Source: Claveliimonas monacensis
Lineage (GTDB): Bacteria > Bacillota > Clostridia > Lachnospirales > Lachnospiraceae
Direction of reading: 5' to 3'
DNA length: 64,000 nucleotides
NCBI RefSeq assembly: GCF_014982975.1
Contig: NZ_JADCKL010000001.1
Location: forward strand, 124,001 to 188,000
Below the pieces are notes generated by a model. That model was given only the letters and a program-made list of their open reading frames with translations. It searched no databases and had not been told where the DNA came from. Shown in pieces: positions 45,757 to 57,831 of this stretch (positions are counted from its first letter, which is position 1; each line of letters opens with the position of its first letter). The translations under genes were made by a program, and so were the position numbers.

Positions 45757-45774
45757 AACAGAAATTTTTATGGA

Positions 45775-45833
45775 AACTGTCAGGAATATGTGCTAGTATA
45801 TATGTAAAGCATTATATTTCTGGCAGTTTTTCT
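45775..45833 (+). terminator. Terminator-like hairpin after trmD
   Basis: AACTGTCAGGAATAT (45775-45789) pairs with ATATTTCTGGCAGTT (45814-45828; two wobble pairs) around a 24-nt loop, followed by TTTTCTC. It would end the ffh-trmD transcript before the accessory block. Confidence 0.6.
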
Positions 45834-45985
45834 CTTACGGCGTCTGCCGCATCTGAAGTTCTACAAAATTCAAAAGAAATCTCAATGCTTTTGTTTCCAT
45901 TACACAAAGCAGAGAGGTTTCCTGAGCAAAATGCTTCTTTCCAGGCAGGATACCTCCTGCAGATCTTAACAAGAAGGAGGTACAT

Positions 45986-46864
45986 ATGAGGAAAAGAAGC
46001 TACCCGATTCCGAACCGGAATTACAAGTCATCCATATTTACGATGCTGTTCAGCGAAAAAGAGAGACTGTTGGAGCTGTATAATGCAGTAAGAGGAACCG
46101 ACTATAAGGATCCGGAGCTTTTGGAGATCAATACTTTGGAGAATGCGATCTACATGGCCATCAAGAATGACCTGTCCTTTGTGATCGACTCCCGGCTGTC
46201 CCTCTATGAGCACCAGTCCACCTACAGTCCCAACCTCCCTCTCAGAATGCTTTTGTATCTTTCGGATCTGTACGCGGACATGACAAGAGATGAAAATCTG
46301 TACGGAATGAAAGCAGTAAAGATCCCTTCGCCTCAGTTCATTATTTTTTATAATGGAGAGGAAGAGCAGCCGGACAGGCAGATACTTAAGATGTCAGATC
46401 TCTACGAGGCAGAGGAGGACGAGCATAAGCTGGAGCTTACTGTGTTGATGCTGAACATTAACGCGGGACATAATCCGGAGCTGATGAACGCCAGCAGAAC
46501 ACTGGCAGATTATGCTGCCTATACATCCAGGGTGCGAAGATACGCAAAAGAGCAGTCTATAGAAGAGGCAGTTGAGAATGCGATCACAGAATGTATCCGG
46601 GAGGGGATCCTTGCAGAGTTTCTGATGAAGAACCGAGCGGAGGCGAAGAGAATGAGTATCTACGAATATGACCAGGCAAAGCATATCCGCCAGGAGCGGC
46701 AGGAGGCCTGGGAGGAAGGAAGAGAAGCAGGACGAGTGTCTTTACTAAAGGAGCAGATTGGCAAGAAACTATCCAGGGGAAAGAGTATATCGGAGATTGC
46801 TGAGGATCTGGAGATGGAGGAGAGTGAGCTCACCAGGCTGATAGAAGAACTACACTGCAGATAA
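45986..46864 (+). CDS. Rpn family PD-(D/E)XK nuclease/putative transposase
   Basis: A 292-residue member of the recombination-promoting nuclease (Rpn/YhgA-like) group, common as dispersed genes in Lachnospiraceae. The N-terminal part carries the nuclease-type core: FTMLFSEKERLLELYNAV, then DLSFVIDSRLSLYEHQSTY, where Asp and Glu-x-Gln form the PD-(D/E)XK-like active site. The C-terminal region is a charged coiled coil ending in a short helix-turn-helix-like segment (KSISEIAEDLEMEESELTRLIEE). AAGGAGG precedes the ATG. These genes are thought to be mobile or involved in recombination; it marks the left side of the accessory block. Confidence 0.85.
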   Translation: MRKRSYPIPNRNYKSSIFTMLFSEKERLLELYNAVRGTDYKDPELLEINTLENAIYMAIKNDLSFVIDSRLSLYEHQSTYSPNLPLRMLLYLSDLYADMTRDENLYGMKAVKIPSPQFIIFYNGEEEQPDRQILKMSDLYEAEEDEHKLELTVLMLNINAGHNPELMNASRTLADYAAYTSRVRRYAKEQSIEEAVENAITECIREGILAEFLMKNRAEAKRMSIYEYDQAKHIRQERQEAWEEGREAGRVSLLKEQIGKKLSRGKSISEIAEDLEMEESELTRLIEELHCR

Positions 46865-46870
46865 ATAAAA

Positions 46871-46980
46871 GGGGTTGTCGGTTAATACCGAATTTTAATC
46901 CCTGACATGCAAGGAAGAGACAATCCCAGAGAATTCGGCCTTTTTTAAGAACCGATCCTCTGTCAGACTGTCTCTTCCTT
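46871..46980. repeat. Cluster of overlapping inverted repeats next to the IS
   Basis: Three pairings compete: GGGGTTGTC (46871-46879) with GACAATCCC (46919-46927, one mismatch); CCGAATT (46888-46894) with AATTCGG (46932-46938), followed by CCTTTTTT; and a perfect 12-bp AAGGAAGAGACA (46911-46922) with TGTCTCTTCCTT (46969-46980). The area is probably the downstream end of the insertion sequence. Confidence 0.55.
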
Positions 46981-47043
46981 TTTCTTCTTCATATTTTAGG
47001 ACGCAAAAGTCCCTTGTTTGGATTTTGAGGAGCGCTCCATCTC

Positions 47044-48798
47044 TTAAGCGGCTTTCTGATCCTTTTTCCCTTCGTATTTCTCGATTTCATGATGCAAAAA
47101 GCGATGGTATTTCAAGATGTTACGACCGATCACATACAGCATGAACTCTTTATACACTTTTTCCCCCGAACGGTAGTTAAACCGCCGGAAGTGTTCATTC
47201 TCTTTGATATCTCCAAAGTGTCCTTCTGTCTGGATTGAACGTGTCTGCCGTTTCATGATCCCTTCTTCACTCTGGATGTTCGCATGGGACTCTTCCTTCA
47301 GCTCCTCCCACTGTTCGTTGATCTTCATCACTTTATTCCGATCGGAATCCTTTTCCGCATTGTATCTGTAAAGACATCTGGATTTATGCTCACAGCCGCT
47401 GCAGTCCGCACAGCCATAGACCTCCACCGTCTGGGTATAGCCGTCCTGCTCTTTGCTTTCCGTCTGGATATGGCGGAGCTCCCTTCCGTCATGGCAGATG
47501 TAATAATGCTCATCTTCAAAGACCGCGTATGTCATGTTGTAATACTTTCCGATCTCTTCTCTGTAAGCACGGGTTTTCCGTTTCTCATGGTCCTGGAGTT
47601 TGACGAAGCTTTTGATCTCATTCTCTTTGAGATACAGCAGGTTCTTTTCGATGCAGTAGCCGCTGTCGGCAGTCACCGCTTCCAACATATCCCCAAACGC
47701 GTTCTGGTGCTTTTCCAGAACCGGGATCAGCGTATTATAGTCTGTCCGGTCATTGCTCACATATCCGTGGACGATGAAGTAATTCTCTACTGCGATCTGG
47801 ACATTGTATGCCGGTTTTAACTGTCCGTTCATCATATGATCTTCTTTCATCCGCATGAATGTCGCTTCCAGGTCTGTTTTGGAATAGCTGTTGCGGTCTT
47901 TCCCCATGATCTCAAAACATTCCTTATATTCCATCAGACGAATCCCGCATTCCTCCAGTTCCTCGTAGAGCTTCTGGATTTCCGGTTTATGCTTTCCTTT
48001 TCCGTAAACGAATCCGATCCCTTCCCCTTCTGCAATCCGTTCCAGGTTCTTCTGCAGCTTCAGGATCTCAAGCGGAGAGCAGTGATCGATCTCAATGACG
48101 GTGTTATTGGATATCTTCTTATGCTTTGTCAGTTTCCGTCTCCTGTTTTCGTTAATGACTTTCCTGACTTTCCCCATTCCTTCGATCACGAACATGTGGG
48201 CATCCCCGAGGTCATATCTGGGGCCATACCCATTCTCGGACAGAAAGGCATTGTACTTTGCATAAAGGGCATCTATGGTGTCCAGAAGCCCCGCAAGGTG
48301 ATAGTTGAGGCTGCCCCGCCAGACGAACGTATATCTGTTTGCGTTTGCTTCAATCTTGGTCCCATCGATGTAGAGCTCTTTCAGCGTAATAAGGCCTTCC
48401 TTTTCCAGACGGCGCATGAACTGATAATTTAATTCATCCAGGACTTCTCCTGTCAGCTTTTTCCCTTTAAAATCGTAAAAGACATCCCTTTGGGGTTTCT
48501 GCCCTCTGGTCAGCCAGATGAATGCAAGGTCTCGCTGACACAGGTCAACAATACGGTCAACAGCCCTGACTCCGCGCATGTTTGCATAGGTCACAACAGC
48601 ATACAGCATGATTGGGTTAAACCCGGTTCTTCCCTTATCTGAATAACAGGCCAGCAGGCCCGAAAAATCCAACTCCTCCATCACGTTTTTCAGGGTATAG
48701 ACTGGATCGTCGTCGGGTAAACTCAATTCGAAGAAACTGAAGTTAATTTTCTGTTGCCCAAACTCAAAAAAATCGTTATAATAATCTTGTTTTAGCAT
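47044..48798 (-). CDS. IS1182 family transposase
   Basis: A full-length 584-residue DDE transposase with no frameshift. Typical features: an N-terminal region with YTLKNVMEELDFSGLLACY and GFNPIMLYAVVTYANMRGVR, the first catalytic aspartate in ELYIDGTKIEANANRYTFVW, the second in AVTADSGYCIE, and a C-terminal DRNKVMKINEQ and SIQTEGHFGDIKENEHFRRFNYRS region holding the glutamate. It may still be active. No passenger genes are inside. Confidence 0.93.
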   Translation of the reverse strand: MLKQDYYNDFFEFGQQKINFSFFELSLPDDDPVYTLKNVMEELDFSGLLACYSDKGRTGFNPIMLYAVVTYANMRGVRAVDRIVDLCQRDLAFIWLTRGQKPQRDVFYDFKGKKLTGEVLDELNYQFMRRLEKEGLITLKELYIDGTKIEANANRYTFVWRGSLNYHLAGLLDTIDALYAKYNAFLSENGYGPRYDLGDAHMFVIEGMGKVRKVINENRRRKLTKHKKISNNTVIEIDHCSPLEILKLQKNLERIAEGEGIGFVYGKGKHKPEIQKLYEELEECGIRLMEYKECFEIMGKDRNSYSKTDLEATFMRMKEDHMMNGQLKPAYNVQIAVENYFIVHGYVSNDRTDYNTLIPVLEKHQNAFGDMLEAVTADSGYCIEKNLLYLKENEIKSFVKLQDHEKRKTRAYREEIGKYYNMTYAVFEDEHYYICHDGRELRHIQTESKEQDGYTQTVEVYGCADCSGCEHKSRCLYRYNAEKDSDRNKVMKINEQWEELKEESHANIQSEEGIMKRQTRSIQTEGHFGDIKENEHFRRFNYRSGEKVYKEFMLYVIGRNILKYHRFLHHEIEKYEGKKDQKAA

Positions 48799-48874
48799 AG
48801 TTCCATTATAACATGGAGCGGAGAGGAAGATGGTTGTCGTTAGCCATCTTTTTCTCTTTTTAGAGGATAAATTT

Positions 48875-48914
48875 CAGGGGCAGATGTGACTCATGCGAGT
48901 CACGTCTGCCCCTG
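48875..48914. repeat. Long perfect-type hairpin, 18-bp stem with 4-nt loop
   Basis: 48875-48892 pairs with 48897-48914 through 18 bp (one G-U) around ATGC. The arms begin CAGGGGCAG and end CTGCCCCTG. No T run follows, so it is not an ordinary terminator. It lies between the IS and the CBASS operon and may be a miniature element or an IS scar. Confidence 0.7.
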
Positions 48915-48987
48915 ATTTGGACTATCTATTTCCCGACAGCCCCTTCTTTTATACTTTTGCGGTCTTGCTTCCTTGCGGTGTTACACT

Positions 48988-49030
48988 CATAAAATAAACC
49001 GCAAGGTATCAATCTTCCCTGCGGTTTTTC
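48988..49030 (-). terminator. Candidate terminator of the CBASS operon
   Basis: Read on the minus strand, AACCGCAGGG pairs with CCTTGCGGTT around a short loop and is followed by TATTTTAT. It begins just after the cyclase stop codon at 49039. Confidence 0.6.
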
Positions 49031-49038
49031 TGTTGAAA

Positions 49039-50412
49039 CTAAATACTTGCCTCGCCAATATGAACACTTATCCGTTTCATGGCAACACATTCTCCATTTT
49101 TTATTACATAGCACTCTACAAAATGCGGTCCTCCAAATAGTGTGTTTTCTGTCTTATAATTCCACCATTTTTTCTCGATTTGCCCTCGTATATCGTTCTT
49201 ACGTTCAGCTATCTCGCCAACATTTCGAACCTTCCACCATATTGCATCTGGATTTGGTACATCTGTAATAGCTTCAAAATGTAACTTCATGCCATGCGGA
49301 ATCAGTTTATAAAATTGTGGATACGTTTCTAAGAATCTGCTCAAAAATTGTTTCCTTATTCCATTCGCTTCCACCTGACACTTAATATCCACATTATAAC
49401 AATCATTAATTGAAACCAAATCTTCAATATACTCTTCAGTATCACTAAATACTGACTTCTGAATTGATGCACACTCACATAATGATGTACCCAGCTCGCT
49501 CCAAAAAGAATGATTAAAAAATATTTCCCATGCAGCAACAGCCTCTTTGTACGTACAATCATCGCTTTCCAAAACACTAAGTTTTTCAAGCTTATCATTC
49601 AGCCTTGATAACCAATTATCCATTTTGTCATAATGATTCTGTGCTGTTAGCAAAGATATATCCGGATCTGTAGGATTATATACCTCTGTTGATTCCTGCA
49701 GTCTGTCTCTGACATTAAGCATTGTATGATAAAATATTTCGTCTATCCTACTATACTCACTGGCAAAAACTTCATCACATAAAACAGATTGAATTAAGCC
49801 TCCAGGCATATTAACCCATCCGTTTCGAGATTTACAAAACATCTTTGATAATCTCACAACCTGCCTTAATTCCGTTCCGTTATCTTTTACCTCATCTTGA
49901 AACCATTTTGTGATCGCTGCCGGATCTCGAGCTGTCCATTTGCTTCCACCAGAATGTTCATAAGAATACTCGGAAGATTCTTCCTCTCTAAATCTTCGGT
50001 AAACCGCAAAATCTACATGATATCCATCTGCATACTGAATTCTGACACAATTAGTTTTACACTCTGGCGTAACTTTAAACTGTCCACATTTCTTTTCAAG
50101 AGCCTTACACACCAATCGTCTGGCTTGTAATGGTGATAGATCGCCAATATTGTTCTGATCAAACACAATTGCAACATCAATGTCATAATCATTGCTATCG
50201 TTTTGTACAACTGTTGCCATTGCCATGCTGCCTTGAACTCTTTTCTCTGCTATTGCATAATGTGTATCATTTTCCTGATTATACAAATCTAAGCCATCTT
50301 CCAATCGCTTAATATTTAAGTCTTTTTTGTCCCTTAAATTTTGCTGCTTTTCACTTTGTAAAACGACACAATTCTTATAAAATTTTCTAAAATCCTTTGA
50401 TACATCATACAT
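49039..50412 (-). CDS. CBASS CD-NTase (cyclic oligonucleotide synthase) with AGS-C-like C-terminal domain
   Basis: Predicted phage-sensing cyclase that makes a cyclic di- or trinucleotide second messenger. The nucleotidyltransferase core has GS at residues 61-62, catalytic DYDID (D77, D79) and a third aspartate in YHVDF (D134). The last 90 residues, with LHFEAI, PDAIWWKVRN, GGPHFVECYVIKN and AMKRISVHI, fit the AGS-C domain seen on a subset of CD-NTases. Its start is coupled to the upstream effector: the effector stop lies inside the GGGGTGA ribosome binding site. Strongly AT-rich relative to the host. The product identity cannot be read from sequence. Confidence 0.88.
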   Translation of the reverse strand: MYDVSKDFRKFYKNCVVLQSEKQQNLRDKKDLNIKRLEDGLDLYNQENDTHYAIAEKRVQGSMAMATVVQNDSNDYDIDVAIVFDQNNIGDLSPLQARRLVCKALEKKCGQFKVTPECKTNCVRIQYADGYHVDFAVYRRFREEESSEYSYEHSGGSKWTARDPAAITKWFQDEVKDNGTELRQVVRLSKMFCKSRNGWVNMPGGLIQSVLCDEVFASEYSRIDEIFYHTMLNVRDRLQESTEVYNPTDPDISLLTAQNHYDKMDNWLSRLNDKLEKLSVLESDDCTYKEAVAAWEIFFNHSFWSELGTSLCECASIQKSVFSDTEEYIEDLVSINDCYNVDIKCQVEANGIRKQFLSRFLETYPQFYKLIPHGMKLHFEAITDVPNPDAIWWKVRNVGEIAERKNDIRGQIEKKWWNYKTENTLFGGPHFVECYVIKNGECVAMKRISVHIGEASI

Positions 50413-50421
50413 CTATAAACA

Positions 50422-51516
50422 TCACCCCTTCACAAAACTTCCCTTTCCTGCTGATCCATCCGAAACAATCACACCAAATGGATATTTTGGTGTTTCTGTA
50501 TTCACAAAATGATAAGATATAATCTGTGGCAACCGATGTGTGTTCAGAGCAAATCTTTTTCCAATCTCTATTGACAAACAACTCGGTATAGATGCCACAA
50601 AGTGCACTTTCTGAATCGAAGGATATTTTTGCTTCAATCCCTCTATCTGATTTAATACTTCCCCTGCATACTCATCCAATTGCACTAATGATTGAATAAT
50701 ATTGTCATCTGGAGTCGGTAATCCAATTTCAACAACATCCATTACTCCAAATTGATTCAAATCAACTTTTTGCACCTTTCTTGTTACCGAAAGTGCTACC
50801 ACTACTTCTGTAGATGCCACATTCAGCTGGTTGGGATAACTAGTATTTAACTTCTGATAATCTTTCTTTTTCCTTTTGGACAACTCATAATACTTTGAAT
50901 CTGCTCTTCTATATTCAAAATATCTTCTTACTTTTCCAGATGCTAAATATGTACCCGCCAGAATGGTATAAGGAATAGGTGCCATACCTGTAAAACAAGA
51001 CTTGAATCCATTACTTCTATTTACAAACGCAGTACATACTTTTTCTATTTTCTTTACAATTATTTCATTAATTTTTGCTGTCATTTTCACATTGAACACA
51101 TCAACAATATCAATGATAATTTCTTTAACCTTGAAATCTGCAAGATTTAATTCTTTTACATTTGAGTCATCGCTGATTTCCTTTTGCACCGGAATTCCAA
51201 ACATATTAAGAATGTATATTCTATCCCGAATATTCTTCTTATACAAAAAGCCGAATGCTATTAAAACCATTCCACAGATAATCATTGCATAATCCGTTTC
51301 ATAAATCACATTTTTATCGGCCATTTCTGCAATAAATGACAGTATTATCTCTTTTGTCCCAGGAAAAGCAGCTACAATCAAAGATATTCCTGTTGTTATC
51401 ATTGTCGTAGATATATCTGTCTCAGAATTTGATTTTGTAAAACATTTTTTTATCATTAAGACTATACCTACAATTGCTATTACTATTATGCCTACTAGAA
51501 TAATGTAAGTTTTCAT
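50422..51516 (-). CDS. CBASS effector: transmembrane-SAVED domain protein
   Basis: A 364-residue membrane effector. Hydrophobic segments: about 4-22, 38-63 and 76-92, so two or three membrane helices. A linker follows (about 95-160), then a SAVED sensor domain (about 165-340). Recognisable SAVED features are GMAPIPYTILAGTYL, a mid-domain beta-rich stretch, and the C-terminal HFVASIPSCLSIEIGKRFAL and ISYHF. SAVED binds cyclic oligonucleotides; TM-SAVED effectors are thought to damage the membrane when triggered. It precedes the cyclase by 9 nt, an effector-first order. RBS AAAGGA lies close downstream of the CIRCE element. Confidence 0.83.
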   Translation of the reverse strand: MKTYIILVGIIVIAIVGIVLMIKKCFTKSNSETDISTTMITTGISLIVAAFPGTKEIILSFIAEMADKNVIYETDYAMIICGMVLIAFGFLYKKNIRDRIYILNMFGIPVQKEISDDSNVKELNLADFKVKEIIIDIVDVFNVKMTAKINEIIVKKIEKVCTAFVNRSNGFKSCFTGMAPIPYTILAGTYLASGKVRRYFEYRRADSKYYELSKRKKKDYQKLNTSYPNQLNVASTEVVVALSVTRKVQKVDLNQFGVMDVVEIGLPTPDDNIIQSLVQLDEYAGEVLNQIEGLKQKYPSIQKVHFVASIPSCLSIEIGKRFALNTHRLPQIISYHFVNTETPKYPFGVIVSDGSAGKGSFVKG

Positions 51517-51536
51517 TCATTTTTTCCTTTCTTTTA

Positions 51537-51563
51537 TTAGCACTCTATTTTGTTGAGTGCTAA
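51537..51563 (-). promoter_or_regulatory. CIRCE element (HrcA operator) in the CBASS leader
   Basis: TTAGCACTC (51537-51545), a 9-bp centre, and GAGTGCTAA (51555-51563): a perfect match to the CIRCE consensus, including spacing. It starts at or within 2 bp of the predicted CBASS transcription start and ends 20 bp before the effector start codon. This is the arrangement seen at HrcA-repressed groESL and dnaK operons. HrcA needs GroEL to bind, so chaperonin titration should derepress the operon. Regulation is inferred from the exact motif. Confidence 0.92.
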
Positions 51564-51567
51564 TAAA

Positions 51568-51596
51568 ATTGTAACATACTTCTTATTTTTTTGCAA
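51568..51596 (-). promoter_or_regulatory. CBASS operon promoter
   Basis: On the minus strand, TTGCAA (51591-51596), 17-bp spacer and extended -10 TGTTACAAT (-10 hexamer at 51568-51573). The predicted start falls at about 51561, inside the edge of the CIRCE element. Confidence 0.75.
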
Positions 51597-51597
51597 T

Positions 51598-51945
51598 CTA
51601 TATAATAAGGAAATAAGACAATCGAAATAAGACCATAAATCGCATTATGATTTCATCTAAAATAGTTTCTTCCTGCATCAGTACCTGTTCCACATCAGAA
51701 GAATCCAAGTGAATACCATAATTTTGTTGAATTGCATTCGATATTTCAGAACGGAGAACTGCCATACCAGAACGATCACTGACACGAACGGATAAATCCG
51801 GTTTTCCATTTCTGATTACTAAAAGATCCACTGTACCATCCCCAATATCAATACAGTTTACTGTGCGATATTTTTTCAAGAGACTTGATTTAAAACACAT
51901 AACTGCTGGGATGCTCTGGCTGAAAACAGCATGAGACAGGAAAAG
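51598..51945 (-). pseudogene. ParM/StbA-like actin-family fragment
   Basis: A decayed piece of a plasmid-segregation actin (ParM/StbA-like). The frame is open from 51945, just after an in-frame TAG, and the recognisable part runs through CIDIGDGTVDLLVIRNGKPD (the second phosphate loop) and SGMAVLRSEI. Similarity continues upstream of the first ATG (51900) to FSQSIPAV, showing that the N-terminal half is missing rather than unstarted. It then degenerates at the C-terminus. It shares strand with the CBASS genes. Most likely a remnant of the plasmid or integrative element that brought the island. Confidence 0.7.
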
Positions 51946-52270
51946 CTACTGTATGAATGAGGAATGAGACACGTTTTTTATGGATGTGTCTTATTTTTAT
52001 GCGGATTTTTCAGAAAAGAGGTGAGATATGGGAAGTGTACATAACCGGGGACCGCCCACAAAACCGATATAAGGAAAACCAAAATTTTATCTCAAAACAA
52101 TAAAAAAATAATTTAAAGAAAGGAAATATTCAGTTTTCAAGGTGCATCGTAGGGGAAAGAAAAACGAAATGTTTAAAACGGATTGGTTTTTACCGAACCC
52201 CTCTCTTGGTGCTTTATACTGGAACGGTCAGCAGGTTATCCTGCTAAGCCTGTCCTATAAAGTGAAACAA
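51946..52270. other. AT-rich noncoding stretch, remnant of mobile DNA
   Basis: No convincing gene. A 14-codon start-like frame (MGSVHNRGPPTKPI, near 52028) follows a good AGAGGTGAG site but stops immediately. A plus-strand frame at 52142-52339 (65 codons) lacks a ribosome binding site and recognisable content. Poly-A and poly-T tracts dominate 52080-52130. Confidence 0.5.
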
Positions 52271-52402
52271 TTATTTTTGCTGTGGAGTTTTCTCCGAATC
52301 TGTTTGAGTTTCCTTGTGCTTTTCTTCACGAAACACTGAAAAATCTCCCATCGCATCATAGGGCAAAGCCATCATATATGTGTTTATTTCTTCCTGTGTC
52401 AT
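52271..52402 (-). CDS. Small ORF, 43 residues, unknown
   Basis: Begins MTQEEINTYMMALPYDAMGD and ends in a lysine/glutamate-rich tail. The start at 52402 has an unusually strong CGGAGGTGAAAAA ribosome binding site. No similarity recognised; it could be a small protein of a former conjugative element or a degraded gene start. Confidence 0.4.
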   Translation of the reverse strand: MTQEEINTYMMALPYDAMGDFSVFREEKHKETQTDSEKTPQQK

Positions 52403-52644
52403 TTTTTCACCTCCGAAAGTTGTTAAAATAAGTGTATCAAAATACCCGCTCTCTAAGTTCCACATCTCCGATACCATTGCTCGTCAAATTCAACATTTAT
52501 GTAGAATTTGATATTAAGGTATTTATCAGAATATGGTATGATATTTTCAAGAGCATTTCTTTGCTATATGCATACATTACTCTCATAAGTGGAAAATGTC
52601 GGTAACAACGAATGGTACAAATAAGTAACAAGGAGATGATTGGC

Positions 52645-53754
52645 ATGATATTAAGTGATGTCCTGAAAGCATTATCAACGCATTGTAAAAAATTAGGGAT
52701 TGAACATAAAGACTTATATTTGATGCTCTTTGAAGAAGAAGATATAAATATAGAACAAACAGTAAAAAATGTTTTTGGCAAAAGAGCTCTGAATCAGCGC
52801 ATCTTTAAAAAAATCATAACGGATGATGGTTTTGTACATTTAACAAATATTATTAAATCCAAATTACTCTCTACAATTGGAGGGCACCAAGCTCTGTATC
52901 AGAGCCTTTATCAGCTTGTTGAAAATGACAACCATCTATCACATACTGATAATGTTCGTATTATTACAACAAGCAGAGAAACACAGGCTGCATACTATGC
53001 TTCCAGTTTTAAAAATATCCGTTTGATTGGTCTGGAAAATAATGATATTATTGCTTACTTGAAAAAATGTAAGATGTCTGAAACAAAAATTGGACTCATT
53101 ATGGCAAGTAAACCTTTAGTAGAATGCTTGAGAATCCCACTGTATATCTGTATGTTCTGTGCCGAAGACACCAATTCTGATTTACCGGAAACACCCGGCG
53201 AGATATTATACAGTTTCTTTCATCGCAATTCTTCATTTTACAACATACGGAGAAGGGCAACCGACACGAGAACAAATCCTCTTGATGCGCAGCAAACAGC
53301 TTTCATCCTTGATTTTGTTCTTCCTTATATTGGATGGCATTTTGAAAAAGAAGATTGTTTTTCTGTGAATGAAACAGATTTTGAAGAGATGATCAAAAAT
53401 TCCATTTTTGTAATCAGATCGTTTTGCAACGGGTTATCTACCATTCCTTTTATGGATTTCCAGTATAAATCTATTTGCTTGATAAAAGTGGCTGATTCTC
53501 TTTATAGAACGCATTCGGCAAATATGCCATGTAATGACTCCATGTTACCAAAAATAATAGATTGCATTTTTAGCTATCTTGGCATTGTATACCAGTATCA
53601 AACTACAGATGGCTCTTTTCAAGAACGCAATCGTTACGCTTTCACCCATCATCAATTCCGAGATTATTTTTCAGCCATAAATAAGCGTATCCAGGAGTAT
53701 GAAGAGTGCCAGGCAATGAGTATCAAAAAGGCAGGGCAAATGCGTTTGCGGTAA
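52645..53754 (+). pseudogene. STAND/NACHT-like NTPase lacking the P-loop (probable deletion derivative)
   Basis: The 369-residue product looks like two ends of a larger protein. The N-terminal 90 residues (ILSDVLKALSTHCKKLGIEH...) resemble the front of a long STAND/NACHT protein. Then comes RIITTSRETQAAYY, which is the strand and arginine finger region found after Walker B, followed by IRLIGLENNDIIAYL, a winged-helix-like part, and YAFTHHQFRDYFSAI near the end. No Walker A or B is present, so an internal in-frame deletion around residue 95 is likely. Start 52645 has AAGGAG; the frame opens at 52612. Low GC, like the CBASS genes. Confidence 0.6.
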
Positions 53755-53832
53755 TTGTAAATAGAAGTTTGGCATAAAGATTTTAGCAATTGCAGGCAGG
53801 ATTTTATCGGGAGTACCGTGTCTTGTGATTAA

Positions 53833-54687
53833 ATGATCATAAAAAATCAAGAAAAAGCAGAGATGCTGACCCGCGAGGAGCGGGTTCGGGAGATCCAGAA
53901 GTTTACGCTGCTGAGTGACGTATTCATGTCAGTGGCTCTGGAGGACATCCCGGCCTGCGAGTATGTGCTGCGGATATTCACGGGGAAAAAGGAACTGACT
54001 CTCCGGAGAGTGAAGACCCAGTACAGCATCTCGAAAATTGCGACAAAGAGTGTCCGACTGGACGTGCTGGCAGAGGATATATGCGGAGCTCTCTACGCCA
54101 TTGAGGTACAGCGGAAGGCCTATGTGGATCACGCCCGGAGAGTCCGGTTCTACAGCGCGATGACAGACAGCAGTCTCCTTGGAAAGGGAGAGGATTACAG
54201 CGGAATGCCGGACCGATACATTTTTTACGTGAGTGAGACAGATATCTGGAATGTGGGCAGGACGGTGTGTCATGTCAGCAAATCTCTGACAGAGGGGCAA
54301 AAGCCATGTCTGAGGTTGTATGAGGATGGCAGTCATGTCACTTATATTAATGCACAGGTGGATGACGGGTCAGAAGTGGCAGCTCTGATGCGCTATTTCA
54401 AGACGGCGGATCCGGAGGATGACAGCCAGGGAGCCTTATCCCGGCGAGTAAAATTTTTAAAAGGTGAAGAAGGAGGCGTGGAGCGTATGTGTGAATTGAC
54501 GGATATGATAGAGAAGAGGGGAGAACTCCGAGGCGAAAATCGAGGCAGACAGGAAGGCAAACGAGCCGTGGCGATCAACCTTGCAGGCATGGGAATGACC
54601 GTAGACAGGATCGCCCAGGCAGTGGAGGAGAATGTGTCCGTTGTGCGGCAGTGGCTCTCTGCGGAGAGTTTGCCAGAGAACCGATAA
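53833..54687 (+). CDS. Rpn family PD-(D/E)XK nuclease/putative transposase, second gene
   Basis: A 284-residue Rpn-like protein of a different subgroup from the one at 45986. FTLLSDVFMSVALEDIPACEYVL, then the nuclease-like core SVRLDVLAEDICGALYAIEVQRK, with Asp and Glu-x-Gln at the expected spacing. The tail contains an HTH-like segment, GMTVDRIAQAVEENVSVVRQWL. GC content is host-like again, so it marks the right edge of the AT-rich island. The ATG at 53833 has no strong ribosome binding site; an internal start at 53872 is possible. Confidence 0.85.
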   Translation: MIIKNQEKAEMLTREERVREIQKFTLLSDVFMSVALEDIPACEYVLRIFTGKKELTLRRVKTQYSISKIATKSVRLDVLAEDICGALYAIEVQRKAYVDHARRVRFYSAMTDSSLLGKGEDYSGMPDRYIFYVSETDIWNVGRTVCHVSKSLTEGQKPCLRLYEDGSHVTYINAQVDDGSEVAALMRYFKTADPEDDSQGALSRRVKFLKGEEGGVERMCELTDMIEKRGELRGENRGRQEGKRAVAINLAGMGMTVDRIAQAVEENVSVVRQWLSAESLPENR

Positions 54688-54722
54688 GTTTTTGCTGCTG
54701 ACAGAAAAATTCCGAAAAATAG

Positions 54723-54751
54723 TTGCGAAAGGCAGTGGAAAATGCTATGAT
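54723..54751 (+). promoter_or_regulatory. Promoter for the M20/YfcC operon
   Basis: TTGCGA (54723-54728), 17-bp spacer, TATGAT (54746-54751). It gives a leader of about 185 nt before the M20 gene, with no gene inside. Confidence 0.6.
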
Positions 54752-54846
54752 AATCGCGATCATATTTTTGTAAAGATCGTACATACTTACAGTACAGTAT
54801 ATAGAGACAATGCGCAGCGGAGTGTTATGGGCAGTTGTCAGTTCGA

Positions 54847-54878
54847 AGAGTTCCGTCAGAGGGGCTCTTTTCTTTTTT
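54847..54878 (+). terminator. Leader terminator (possible attenuator) before the M20 gene
   Basis: AGAGTTCC (54847-54854) pairs with GGGGCTCT (54861-54868; two wobble pairs) around GTCAGA, followed by a T-rich tract TTTCTTTTTT. It sits between the promoter and the start codon, so transcription may be attenuated. Confidence 0.5.
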
Positions 54879-54943
54879 ATAGAGCGTGCAGACTTTTTGC
54901 GGCATACCAGGGCATTGGAATTAGGAAAGACAGGTGAGAGATT

Positions 54944-56176
54944 ATGGGAGTGACAGCGGCCGAGATCAGAAGGAGAGCGGAGGAGCTCCGAGGACAGATC
55001 ACAGCGGACAGGCGGTACCTTCACCAGATACCGGAGATCGGGATGGAGCTGCCAAAGACAGCGGATTATATCAGAAAACGGCTGGATGAGATGGGAATAC
55101 CGTGGGAGAACTGCGGCGGGGATCTGCCGGAACAAGTGACCAGGGATTTTATGGAAGCAGGTTTCCCCAGGATGGAGCGGGCCGAGGGAGTGACAGCCGT
55201 GATCGGACATGGCAGCCCCTGCATCTTGCTGCGGGCGGATATGGACGCCCTTCCTATCCGGGAGGACAGTGATCTGGCGTTTAGATCCGGGAATGGATAT
55301 GGACATATGTGCGGCCATGACAGCCACGCGGCCATGCTCCTGGGGGCGGCGCAGATCCTCAAAGAGAGGGAGGACTCCCTTGCCGGGAGTGTCAAGCTGG
55401 TGTTCCAGCCCGGGGAGGAGACTGGCGCCGGGGCGAGAGTTCTGGTGGAGAATGGTCTTCTGGAGAACCCGAAGGTGGACGCCGCATTCGGGCTCCATGT
55501 CCAGTCCGTCACAAGAACAGGGGAACTGGGGTATGCAGTGGGCGTCAATTCGGCTTCCCTGGATACGTTTATCCTGAAGATCAGGGGCAGCGGCGGCCAC
55601 AGCTCCCAGCCACAGCTCTGCATTGATCCCCTGATGATCATGAACCAGGTGTACCAGGCTGTCAACCTGCTTGTTACAAGGGAGGCGGACCCTGCGGCCA
55701 TGGTGGCTCTGACCTGCGGCGTGGCAAAGGGAGGCACAGCTGTCAATATCATTCCCGGGGAGGCGGAGCTCCATATCGGGGTGCGGACTTTGGATGTCCA
55801 GGCAGCAGACCATCTGACAAGGCGGATACCGGAGGTCATCGACCACTATGTGAAGGCCTGGAGGGGGGCGTATGACCTGACTGTGTTCCACACGCCCTGC
55901 ACTTACAGCGACGAAGCGCTGTGCCGGGAGCTTGTCTCCTTTGCGGAAGAGATACTGGGGAAAGAGAATGTCTGCCAGATCCCGCCTATGACGGGGACAG
56001 AGGATTTCGGATATATCACCAGGGAAGTGCCGGGCATGTTTGCCTTTATTGGAGCGGGACAGCCGGGAAATGCGCCCCTCCACAATCCCCATATGGTGCT
56101 GGACGAGGAGGTGCTTCCTCTGGGAGCTGCCCTTCACGCTTACACAGCCATCTCATGGCTGGCTTCCCGCAGATAG
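54944..56176 (+). CDS. M20 family amidohydrolase (N-acyl-amino-acid/hippurate hydrolase type)
   Basis: A 410-residue M20D metallopeptidase that probably deacylates N-acyl amino acids or dipeptides. Metal motifs: RADMDALPI, GHMCGHDSHAAMLLGAA, PGEETGAGARVLVENGLL and the C-terminal TGTEDFGYI and HNPHMVLDE. Start 54944 follows a GAGAGA-type site. A YfcC-type transporter begins 52 nt downstream, suggesting uptake of the substrate or export of the freed acid. Confidence 0.9.
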   Translation: MGVTAAEIRRRAEELRGQITADRRYLHQIPEIGMELPKTADYIRKRLDEMGIPWENCGGDLPEQVTRDFMEAGFPRMERAEGVTAVIGHGSPCILLRADMDALPIREDSDLAFRSGNGYGHMCGHDSHAAMLLGAAQILKEREDSLAGSVKLVFQPGEETGAGARVLVENGLLENPKVDAAFGLHVQSVTRTGELGYAVGVNSASLDTFILKIRGSGGHSSQPQLCIDPLMIMNQVYQAVNLLVTREADPAAMVALTCGVAKGGTAVNIIPGEAELHIGVRTLDVQAADHLTRRIPEVIDHYVKAWRGAYDLTVFHTPCTYSDEALCRELVSFAEEILGKENVCQIPPMTGTEDFGYITREVPGMFAFIGAGQPGNAPLHNPHMVLDEEVLPLGAALHAYTAISWLASRR

Positions 56177-56228
56177 GCGGGAGGCGAAGGCGTTATCGTT
56201 ATCTATAGAGAGAAAGAGAGTGAAGAAA

Positions 56229-57632
56229 ATGGATAAGAAAACATCCAGGAGCAAAGGCTTCCACATGCCCCATGTATTTATCATCCTCCTGCTCATCATG
56301 CTGTTGGTGGTGGCGCTGTCCTACGTGATCCCAAGCGGAAGCTACGAGCGGATCACCGATGAGACGACGGGGATATCGGTGGTGGATCCGGATACGTTCC
56401 GATATGTGGAAAATGAGAATCCTATCACATTTATGAACTACTTTGAGGCGGTGTACAACGGGTTTGTGAACGGTGCCACTATCATGGGAACTCTGTTCAT
56501 CAGTTCCGGCGTCATCTACCTTTTGGAGGTCAGCGGGGCATTCGGCGCGGGGATCGGCGCTATCTTAAAGCGGACCAGGGGCCGGGAATTTTCCGTTGTG
56601 TGGATCTTTTACACCATCTTTGTGGTGTTTGGAGTCCTGGGATACGGGGAGGCTGCCTATCCTTTTTACCCGCTGGCAGTGAGCATCGGTTTTGCCCTTG
56701 GGTATGACAGGATCGTGGGCGCCGGTCTGGCTATCGTGGGAAGCACGGTGGGCTTTACATCGGGCCTTATGAACATGTTCACCACCGGCGTGTCCCAGCA
56801 GATCGTGGGGCTGCCCATGTTTTCCGGCATCGGTTACCGGGCTGTGGGGCTGGTGGTGTTCTATCTGATCGGCCTTGCGGGCCTGTACAGCTATTGCCGA
56901 AAGATACGGAAGGATCCGGCAAAAAGTATCGTGAGCGAAGAGTACATGGGGCAGAAGACGGAGGATGAGATGGAGCACACGGAGGAGATGACCGGGCGAA
57001 GAGTGCTGGGACTGCTGGCCTTTCTTGCGGTCATCGTCATCCAGGGGTACGGCTGTATCACACAGGGATGGTCCTTTGCCCAGATCGCGGCTCTCTATGT
57101 CATGTTTGGCATGGTGCTGACCGTTATTTTCCGGTTCAGCCCAAGTGAGGCCTGCCAGCTTTTCTGTAAAGGCGCCACCAGAGTGTTCGCGGCGGCCTTT
57201 GCCGTGGGCCTTGCCCAGTCAGTAGTGGTGCTTATGAACCAGGCCTGCATCATGGACACCATTGTCCACGCCATGGGAGAGCTGCTGGAGAACAAGAGCG
57301 CGATCCTGGCGCTGCTGATCATCTTTGTGTTTGTGACCCTCTTTAATTTCCTGGTGGTATCGGGAAGCGGAAAAGCGGTCATTATCATGCCTATTCTCCA
57401 GCCCCTGGGAAAGATCCTGCATATCAACCAGCAGGTGCTGGTGCTCACGTACCAGTACGGCGACGGCATCACCAACAGCTTCTGGCCGGGCAGCTCCCTT
57501 GTCCAGCTGTCCATGTGCGGGGTGGACTATGGCTCCTGGATCAGATTCTGCTGGAAGATCTATCTCTCTTTCATAGTGAGTGCCTTTATCCTGATCATGG
57601 TGGCACACGGCATCGGCTATGGCCCGTTCTGA
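56229..57632 (+). CDS. YfcC family transporter (C4-dicarboxylate/amino-acid anaerobic carrier family)
   Basis: A 467-residue polytopic membrane protein with about 12 helices. MPHVFIILLLIMLLVVALSYVIPSGSYER is the N-terminal family signature, with VVFGVLGYGEAAYPFYPLAVSIG and FLVVSGSGKAVIIMPILQPLG later. Family members are proposed to move arginine/ornithine, dipeptides or C4 acids; substrate unknown here. I used ATG 56229; the frame continues upstream to 56040 inside the M20 gene but lacks a site there. Confidence 0.88.
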   Translation: MDKKTSRSKGFHMPHVFIILLLIMLLVVALSYVIPSGSYERITDETTGISVVDPDTFRYVENENPITFMNYFEAVYNGFVNGATIMGTLFISSGVIYLLEVSGAFGAGIGAILKRTRGREFSVVWIFYTIFVVFGVLGYGEAAYPFYPLAVSIGFALGYDRIVGAGLAIVGSTVGFTSGLMNMFTTGVSQQIVGLPMFSGIGYRAVGLVVFYLIGLAGLYSYCRKIRKDPAKSIVSEEYMGQKTEDEMEHTEEMTGRRVLGLLAFLAVIVIQGYGCITQGWSFAQIAALYVMFGMVLTVIFRFSPSEACQLFCKGATRVFAAAFAVGLAQSVVVLMNQACIMDTIVHAMGELLENKSAILALLIIFVFVTLFNFLVVSGSGKAVIIMPILQPLGKILHINQQVLVLTYQYGDGITNSFWPGSSLVQLSMCGVDYGSWIRFCWKIYLSFIVSAFILIMVAHGIGYGPF

Positions 57633-57697
57633 CAGGTCCGACGGATGCGGGTCCTTGAGAATGTCCTAAAAAGAGGGGAAGATGGCGGAAATTTTCC

Positions 57698-57726
57698 TTG
57701 CAATTCTCCTGTACATATGCTATGAT
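57698..57726 (+). promoter_or_regulatory. Separate promoter for rplS
   Basis: TTGCAA (57698-57703), 17-bp spacer and TATGAT (57721-57726), about 105 bp before the rplS start. It gives rplS its own transcription after separation from trmD. The 105-nt leader could hold an L19 autoregulatory structure, but I did not establish one. Confidence 0.65.
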
Positions 57727-57831
57727 AAAATGCGTTGTGAGAAGAAAGAGATGGTCCTCTGATACGCTTCCGCGCTGAGGCGGGAATAGAAAAATGTATT
57801 AAGAACGTCCGAATAACAAGGAGGTCACACA

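What the first reader, a model, noticed from the sequence alone, without database searches (positions are those of the whole stretch)
51537..51563. CBASS anti-phage operon under a perfect CIRCE/HrcA heat-shock operator
The sequence shows TTAGCACTC-N9-GAGTGCTAA immediately after an extended -10 promoter (51568-51596), 20 bp before the TM-SAVED effector start. CIRCE is the established operator of HrcA, the chaperonin-controlled repressor of groESL and dnaK in Firmicutes. Its presence in front of a cyclase/effector pair suggests that CBASS is coupled to proteostasis: unfolded phage or host protein that titrates GroEL would release HrcA and raise CBASS expression. An 18/18 match with correct spacing is very unlikely by chance. 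HrcA control of CBASS is, to my knowledge, not an established mechanism.
Basis: partly seen in the sequence, partly recalled or inferred. Interest (0 to 1): 0.96.

Follow-up and report, generated by a model that had tools for sequence, protein, structure and literature searches.

The report
Heat-shock switch before antiphage operon
A bacterial antiphage (CBASS) operon carries, right at its promoter, the predicted binding site of the heat-shock repressor HrcA, and the same arrangement turns up before some other, quite different CBASS operons in related bacteria, which suggests that this immune system can be wired to the cell's protein-folding alarm.

Summary
Confirmed: a perfect CIRCE (18 of 18 arm bases) at 51537-51563, four bases after a predicted promoter and 20 before a two-gene CBASS operon (TM-SAVED effector, DncV-like CD-NTase). 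The genome has hrcA; its six other CIRCE sites (up to 3 mismatches) precede HrcA or chaperone genes. Elsewhere I found CIRCE with at most 1 mismatch before three more CBASS operons, one homologous (G551) and two of other types (G126, G815), and weak sites (3 mismatches) before two (G341, G937). Of 26 loci with a better-supported cyclase-family match, 6 have a site, window included; 0 of 16 plasmid and 0 of 6 viral regions do. In 546 kb around candidate CBASS genes those six are the only sites with up to 4 mismatches. hrcA is in all five other carriers. HrcA control is the best reading. Release by phage through GroEL titration is an untested inference: one published infection profile does not fit it simply, and predicted CIRCE genes do not always respond to HrcA loss. 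Searches of one open-access library found no paper holding both HrcA and CBASS. I judge it a new regulatory variant of a known immune system.

The parts
51537..51563 (-). CIRCE, predicted HrcA operator, 18 of 18 arm bases
51532..51568 (-). whole dyad: CIRCE with 5 further paired bases on each side; overlaps the last base of the -10
   Evidence: the stretch 51512-51567 as RNA folds at -16.1 kcal/mol, z -7.62
51568..51573 (-). predicted -10 TACAAT (extended, TG upstream)
51591..51596 (-). predicted -35 TTGCAA, 17-base spacer
50422..51516 (-). TM-SAVED effector, 364 aa
   Evidence: Pfam SAVED 1.8e-25; PADLOC 2TM effector 2e-78; solved relatives 9om7 and 9wq2 at about 8e-44
49039..50412 (-). DncV-like CD-NTase with AGS_C domain, 457 aa
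   Evidence: Pfam AGS_C 7.1e-35 and DncV-like 2.2e-17; PADLOC cyclase 1.5e-187; solved CD-NTase 7ljo 5.4e-20

Best explanation
The CBASS operon is a member of the host's HrcA regulon. HrcA, with GroEL as its helper, binds CIRCE just downstream of the promoter and holds transcription down; when unfolded protein occupies GroEL, HrcA loses activity and the operon is expressed together with the chaperones. Shown here: operator, position, presence of hrcA, recurrence before other CBASS operons, and its presence in a homologue whose unconstrained sites have largely diverged. Inferred: binding, repression, and release under protein-folding stress. More speculative: that phage infection itself is the releasing stress.
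For: Perfect site, 0 of 100 shuffles. In the genome 7 sites with up to 3 mismatches, reversed pattern 0; the other 6 precede HrcA, HSP90, Cpn10, two HSP20 and a ClpB-like gene by Pfam. hrcA 6.1e-97. Two operons of other types have it: G126 (1 mismatch; CD-NTase, E1-E2, JAB, 2TM effector) and G815, another family (0 mismatches; SAVED-PDDEXK effector, CD-NTase, E1-E2, JAB). In 51 fetched regions, 546,159 bases, the six sites with up to 4 mismatches are all in leaders of CBASS genes; reversed pattern 0; shuffles of 3.28 Mb gave 0 at up to 2 mismatches, 1 at up to 3, 14 at up to 4. In the six carrier genomes 34 sites with up to 3 mismatches: 26 before Pfam-confirmed HrcA or chaperone genes, 6 before CBASS, 2 unassigned. 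GroE-dependent HrcA repression is described in PMC3842655 and PMC8533110 (passages).
Against: No binding or expression data. CIRCE (up to 4 mismatches) is missing from 20 of the 26 better-supported loci, including the next homologues L029 (cyclase 66%) and G435 (49%), and two further CD-NTase loci of the same genome. 0 of 16 plasmid and 0 of 6 viral regions have it; the Paenibacillus plasmid has one stretch with 5 mismatches. The window site is the one I was given, so it is no independent test; the 4-mismatch cut-off was set after hits were seen. In Lactobacillus plantarum, loss of hrcA raised groEL and groES only about 2-fold at 28 C, and most of the predicted CIRCE genes beyond the chaperones did not change much (PMC3842655, section 11): a predicted CIRCE is no proof of control. 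In Lactococcus infected by sk1, dnaK and grpE rise but groES and groEL fall at 5 min (PMC10986495, passages), which does not fit simple release of HrcA.
Confidence: 0.78

Rival explanations
1. HrcA binds, but CIRCE serves as a silencer only (a narrower form of the best explanation, not exclusive of it): a mobile, potentially toxic operon uses a repressor that its hosts already have, so that it stays low on arrival; stress release is a by-product and plays no part in immunity.
For: The TM-SAVED family is sporadic: matches in 8 of 397 family genomes, only 3 of them strong; of 11 genus genomes only the window's own has a close match and one other a weaker one (4.9e-12). Transposase-family genes lie nearby; a recombinase-like frame lies near the G551 operon (read by eye). 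hrcA was found in 9 of 9 genomes tested. CapW represses CBASS, yet the CapW-dependent rise is not needed for defence (PMC9122588, abstract).
Against: Same operator, so sequence alone cannot tell it from the best explanation; a true HrcA target would be released by protein-folding stress whether or not that serves immunity.
Confidence: 0.4
2. The inverted repeat acts as RNA: a 5' hairpin that protects the message or tunes translation.
For: The transcribed leader would fold into one strong hairpin, -16.1 kcal/mol, z -7.62, 0 of 200 shuffles as good.
Against: The arm letters themselves are kept across unrelated operons, and they are those of CIRCE; a hairpin needs only pairing. The same letters precede the chaperone genes.
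Confidence: 0.08
3. Chance or hitch-hiking: a chaperone promoter was captured and means nothing for CBASS.
For: Transposase-family genes lie nearby.
Against: Recurrence before unrelated CBASS types in two host families; the -10 to CIRCE distance is 4 in the four strong CBASS sites against 14 for groES and hrcA of the same genome, so the window promoter is not a plain copy of those. That distance is not unique to CBASS: htpG of G126 and of G937 also score 4.
Confidence: 0.05

Closest known systems
HrcA/CIRCE class I heat-shock regulon (groESL, hrcA-grpE-dnaK)
   Same: Operator sequence, position at the promoter, repressor gene in the genome
   Different: Target is an immune operon, not a chaperone
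CapW/BrxR and CapH+CapP control of CBASS and other immune operons (PMC13373217, passages; PMC9122588, abstract)
   Same: A repressor keeps an immune operon low until a stress signal
   Different: Those regulators are encoded beside the operon and answer to DNA damage; here the repressor is the host's own, encoded elsewhere, and the signal would be unfolded protein
HsdC, a restriction-modification controller of Mollicutes whose site overlaps the CIRCE of clpB (PMC5282649, passages)
   Same: Meeting point of a defence system's control and HrcA/CIRCE
   Different: There a defence regulator binds a chaperone promoter; here the chaperone regulator's site lies on a defence promoter
bNACHT25, whose phage sensing needs the chaperone DnaJ (PMC12169576, abstract)
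   Same: A chaperone links infection to immunity
   Different: There the sensor protein is activated; here transcription would be

Membership tests
CBASS | CD-NTase cyclase gene | tested here: met
CBASS | adjacent effector with a cyclic-oligonucleotide sensor domain | tested here: met
   SAVED, 2TM effector model
CBASS | defence against phage through a cyclic nucleotide | not testable with these tools
   none
HrcA/CIRCE regulon | TTAGCACTC-N9-GAGTGCTAA at the promoter | tested here: met
HrcA/CIRCE regulon | hrcA in the genome, itself behind CIRCE | tested here: met
HrcA/CIRCE regulon | operator kept in homologous operons | tested here: inconclusive
   kept in G551; absent in L029, G435 and four plasmid relatives
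HrcA/CIRCE regulon | HrcA binds and represses; heat releases | not testable with these tools
   none
CapW or CapH+CapP controlled CBASS | regulator gene next to the operon | tested here: inconclusive
   Pfam scan of 7 larger frames between 45986 and 54687 showed no WYL, HTH or peptidase domain, but 2 of the 7 matched no family and smaller frames were not scanned

The most novel reading that the evidence does not exclude
In Clostridia several CBASS lineages have separately been wired to the host's chaperonin-sensing repressor, so that phage proteins which occupy GroEL, such as capsid subunits, release HrcA and raise the immune system at the moment of virion production: immunity gated by protein folding rather than by DNA damage.
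Probability: 0.3. Interest if true: 0.92.

Novelty: new variant of a known kind. Interest (0 to 1): 0.8.

Why it matters
The transcriptional controllers of CBASS that I read of (CapW, CapH+CapP) answer to DNA damage. A link to the folding alarm would be a second kind of danger signal, would use a repressor that the host already has, and makes a direct prediction that can be tested with heat, GroEL depletion or capsid expression.

Tried and rejected
Searches for close relatives by single protein gave nothing in viral contigs, nor did alignments A3 and A1; A4 and A5 gave 4 and 2 loci, none with CIRCE. The one scan of genome contigs gave 3 loci, two of them G551 and G435 again. tblastn-type search of the effector over 392 genomes found only the window's own; profile searches did better, while the effector profile over 391 genomes of the class gave 3 weak matches beside the window. 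In phage records the effector and the L205 cyclase gave nothing, and the window and L160 cyclases one Enterococcus phage record, not examined further. A scan of viral contigs for perfect CIRCE found 104 stretches (80 listed, all 104 held); the genes behind the sites, read by eye, include groES, htpG and Hsp20 and others unknown; tblastn of ten CBASS proteins of the carriers against the 104 gave no hit.

I first wrote '51 CBASS' regions in a note and corrected it: the 51 regions include weak hits never confirmed. The 26 are: 11 places at E up to 1e-10 (two of them, G456 and G450, match only the C-terminal domain), 11 further places above the cut-off, L029, and three below the cut-off confirmed by PADLOC, G815, G761 and a third G000 locus; recounted. 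G815 was looked at because it had a site; the other two were then checked in the same way. I rejected the claim that a 4-base gap from -10 to CIRCE is special to CBASS (the score weights were my own, and several chaperone promoters were not found by it). Likewise the longer dyad: 5, 6, 6 and 0 extra pairs in the four strong sites, but clpB of G937 has 6 and of G126 has 4. Two sites remain unassigned: G551 C174 at a contig end and G937 C1:13268, which lies inside the start of a 472-aa frame that reads by eye as a radical SAM protein. No structure was predicted.

Full report
Observation. The window holds one CIRCE with up to 3 mismatches, at 51537-51563, and it is perfect; 100 shuffles gave none. 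It lies on the leader of a minus-strand operon: TTGCAA, 17 bases, TACAAT, 4 bases, CIRCE, 20 bases, ATG. The dyad runs five bases further on either side. The genes are a TM-SAVED effector and a DncV-like CD-NTase, with solved relatives. The island lies between frames that read by eye as trmD and rplS, with transposase-family genes nearby.

The host's CIRCE regulon. The assembly (3.0 Mb, 36 contigs) has hrcA (6.1e-97) and seven CIRCE sites with up to 3 mismatches; the reversed pattern has none. Six precede HrcA, HSP90, Cpn10, two HSP20 genes and a ClpB-like gene. The seventh is the CBASS operon. So the operator appears to be in use in this genome and is not scattered.

Homologues. Fourfold sites agree at 32 of 79 and 36 of 99, so the operator is present where unconstrained sites have largely diverged; transfer and regain cannot be excluded. 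Next homologues lack it: L029, cyclase 66%, G435, 49%, and four plasmid regions, of which one has a stretch with 5 mismatches.

Other CBASS types. Profile searches for cyclases in 397 genomes of the family (matches in 13) and 391 of the class (matches in 16) brought more CBASS loci, whose surroundings I fetched. G126 has CIRCE with 1 mismatch just before a type II operon: CD-NTase, E1-E2, JAB, 2TM effector. G815, of another family, has a perfect CIRCE 74 bases before a SAVED-PDDEXK effector followed by CD-NTase, E1-E2 and JAB. G341 and G937 have sites with 3 mismatches between a predicted promoter and the first CBASS gene, 7 bases from the -10; I call these weak. All five of these genomes have hrcA, and so do three genomes with cyclase-family matches but no site (G435, G005, G450).

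Numbers. Among 26 loci with a better-supported cyclase-family match, 6 have a site with up to 4 mismatches, 4 of them strong (loci); without the window, 5 and 3 of 25. In 51 fetched regions of 546,159 bases, not all of them confirmed CBASS, the only six sites with up to 4 mismatches are these; single-base shuffles within 100-base blocks, 3.28 Mb in all, gave 0, 1 and 14 at up to 2, 3 and 4 mismatches. Over the six carriers 34 sites with up to 3 mismatches divide into 26 before HrcA or chaperone genes by Pfam, 6 before CBASS and 2 unassigned. 0 of 16 plasmid and 0 of 6 viral regions have one with up to 4 mismatches. Of 104 viral contigs stretches with a perfect CIRCE none has a relative of ten CBASS proteins of the carriers.

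Mechanism. Established and read here: CIRCE is TTAGCACTC-N9-GAGTGCTAA, bound by HrcA, whose repression depends on GroELS and is lifted when non-native protein accumulates (PMC3842655, passages; a like model for Campylobacter in PMC8533110, passages). From this it follows, as inference, that the CBASS operon would be low in calm cells and rise with the chaperones. Two cautions. In L. plantarum, loss of hrcA raised groEL and groES about 2-fold at 28 C, and most other predicted CIRCE genes changed little (PMC3842655, section 11). And whether phage infection releases HrcA is open: GroEL serves some phage capsids (stated in PMC10986495), but in that study groES and groEL fell in infected Lactococcus while dnaK and grpE rose.

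Comparison. Controllers of CBASS that I read of, CapW and CapH+CapP, are encoded beside the operon and answer to DNA damage, as does CapK+CapS for Bub and other immune operons (PMC13373217, passages; PMC9122588, abstract and outline). The CapW-dependent rise is not needed for defence, a caution for this case too. A restriction-modification controller of Mollicutes binds over the CIRCE of clpB, the converse arrangement (PMC5282649, passages). Searches for papers with HrcA and CBASS, with CIRCE, HrcA and CBASS, and with HrcA, CIRCE and phage defense gave none; the library lacks most subscription journals and preprints. Six papers hold HrcA and abortive infection and 19 hold four of five wider terms; of these I opened two, PMC10986495 and PMC12169576, and saw the rest as listings.

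Verdict. HrcA control is likely; the phage trigger is a good and testable guess.

Noticed in passing
window 51598-51900: 100-aa frame just upstream of the promoter with a sub-threshold match to an MreB-like C-terminal domain (2.4e-5); may be a remnant of a mobile element.
   Followed up: no
window 45757-57831: CBASS, transposase-family genes and others lie between frames that read by eye as trmD and rplS, which usually adjoin (recalled).
   Followed up: no
L202 (G000 C7) and L204:4859-5953 (G000 C31): Two further CD-NTase loci in the same genome, without CIRCE.
   Followed up: partly
L019:5954-5962: The G551 leader has a third CIRCE half-site between the CIRCE and the effector gene.
   Followed up: no
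viral contigs L033, L042, L054, L060, L075, L083 and others: Perfect CIRCE before genes that read by eye as viral Hsp20, also before groES and htpG; some contigs have two or three CIRCE close together (L057, L068).
   Followed up: no
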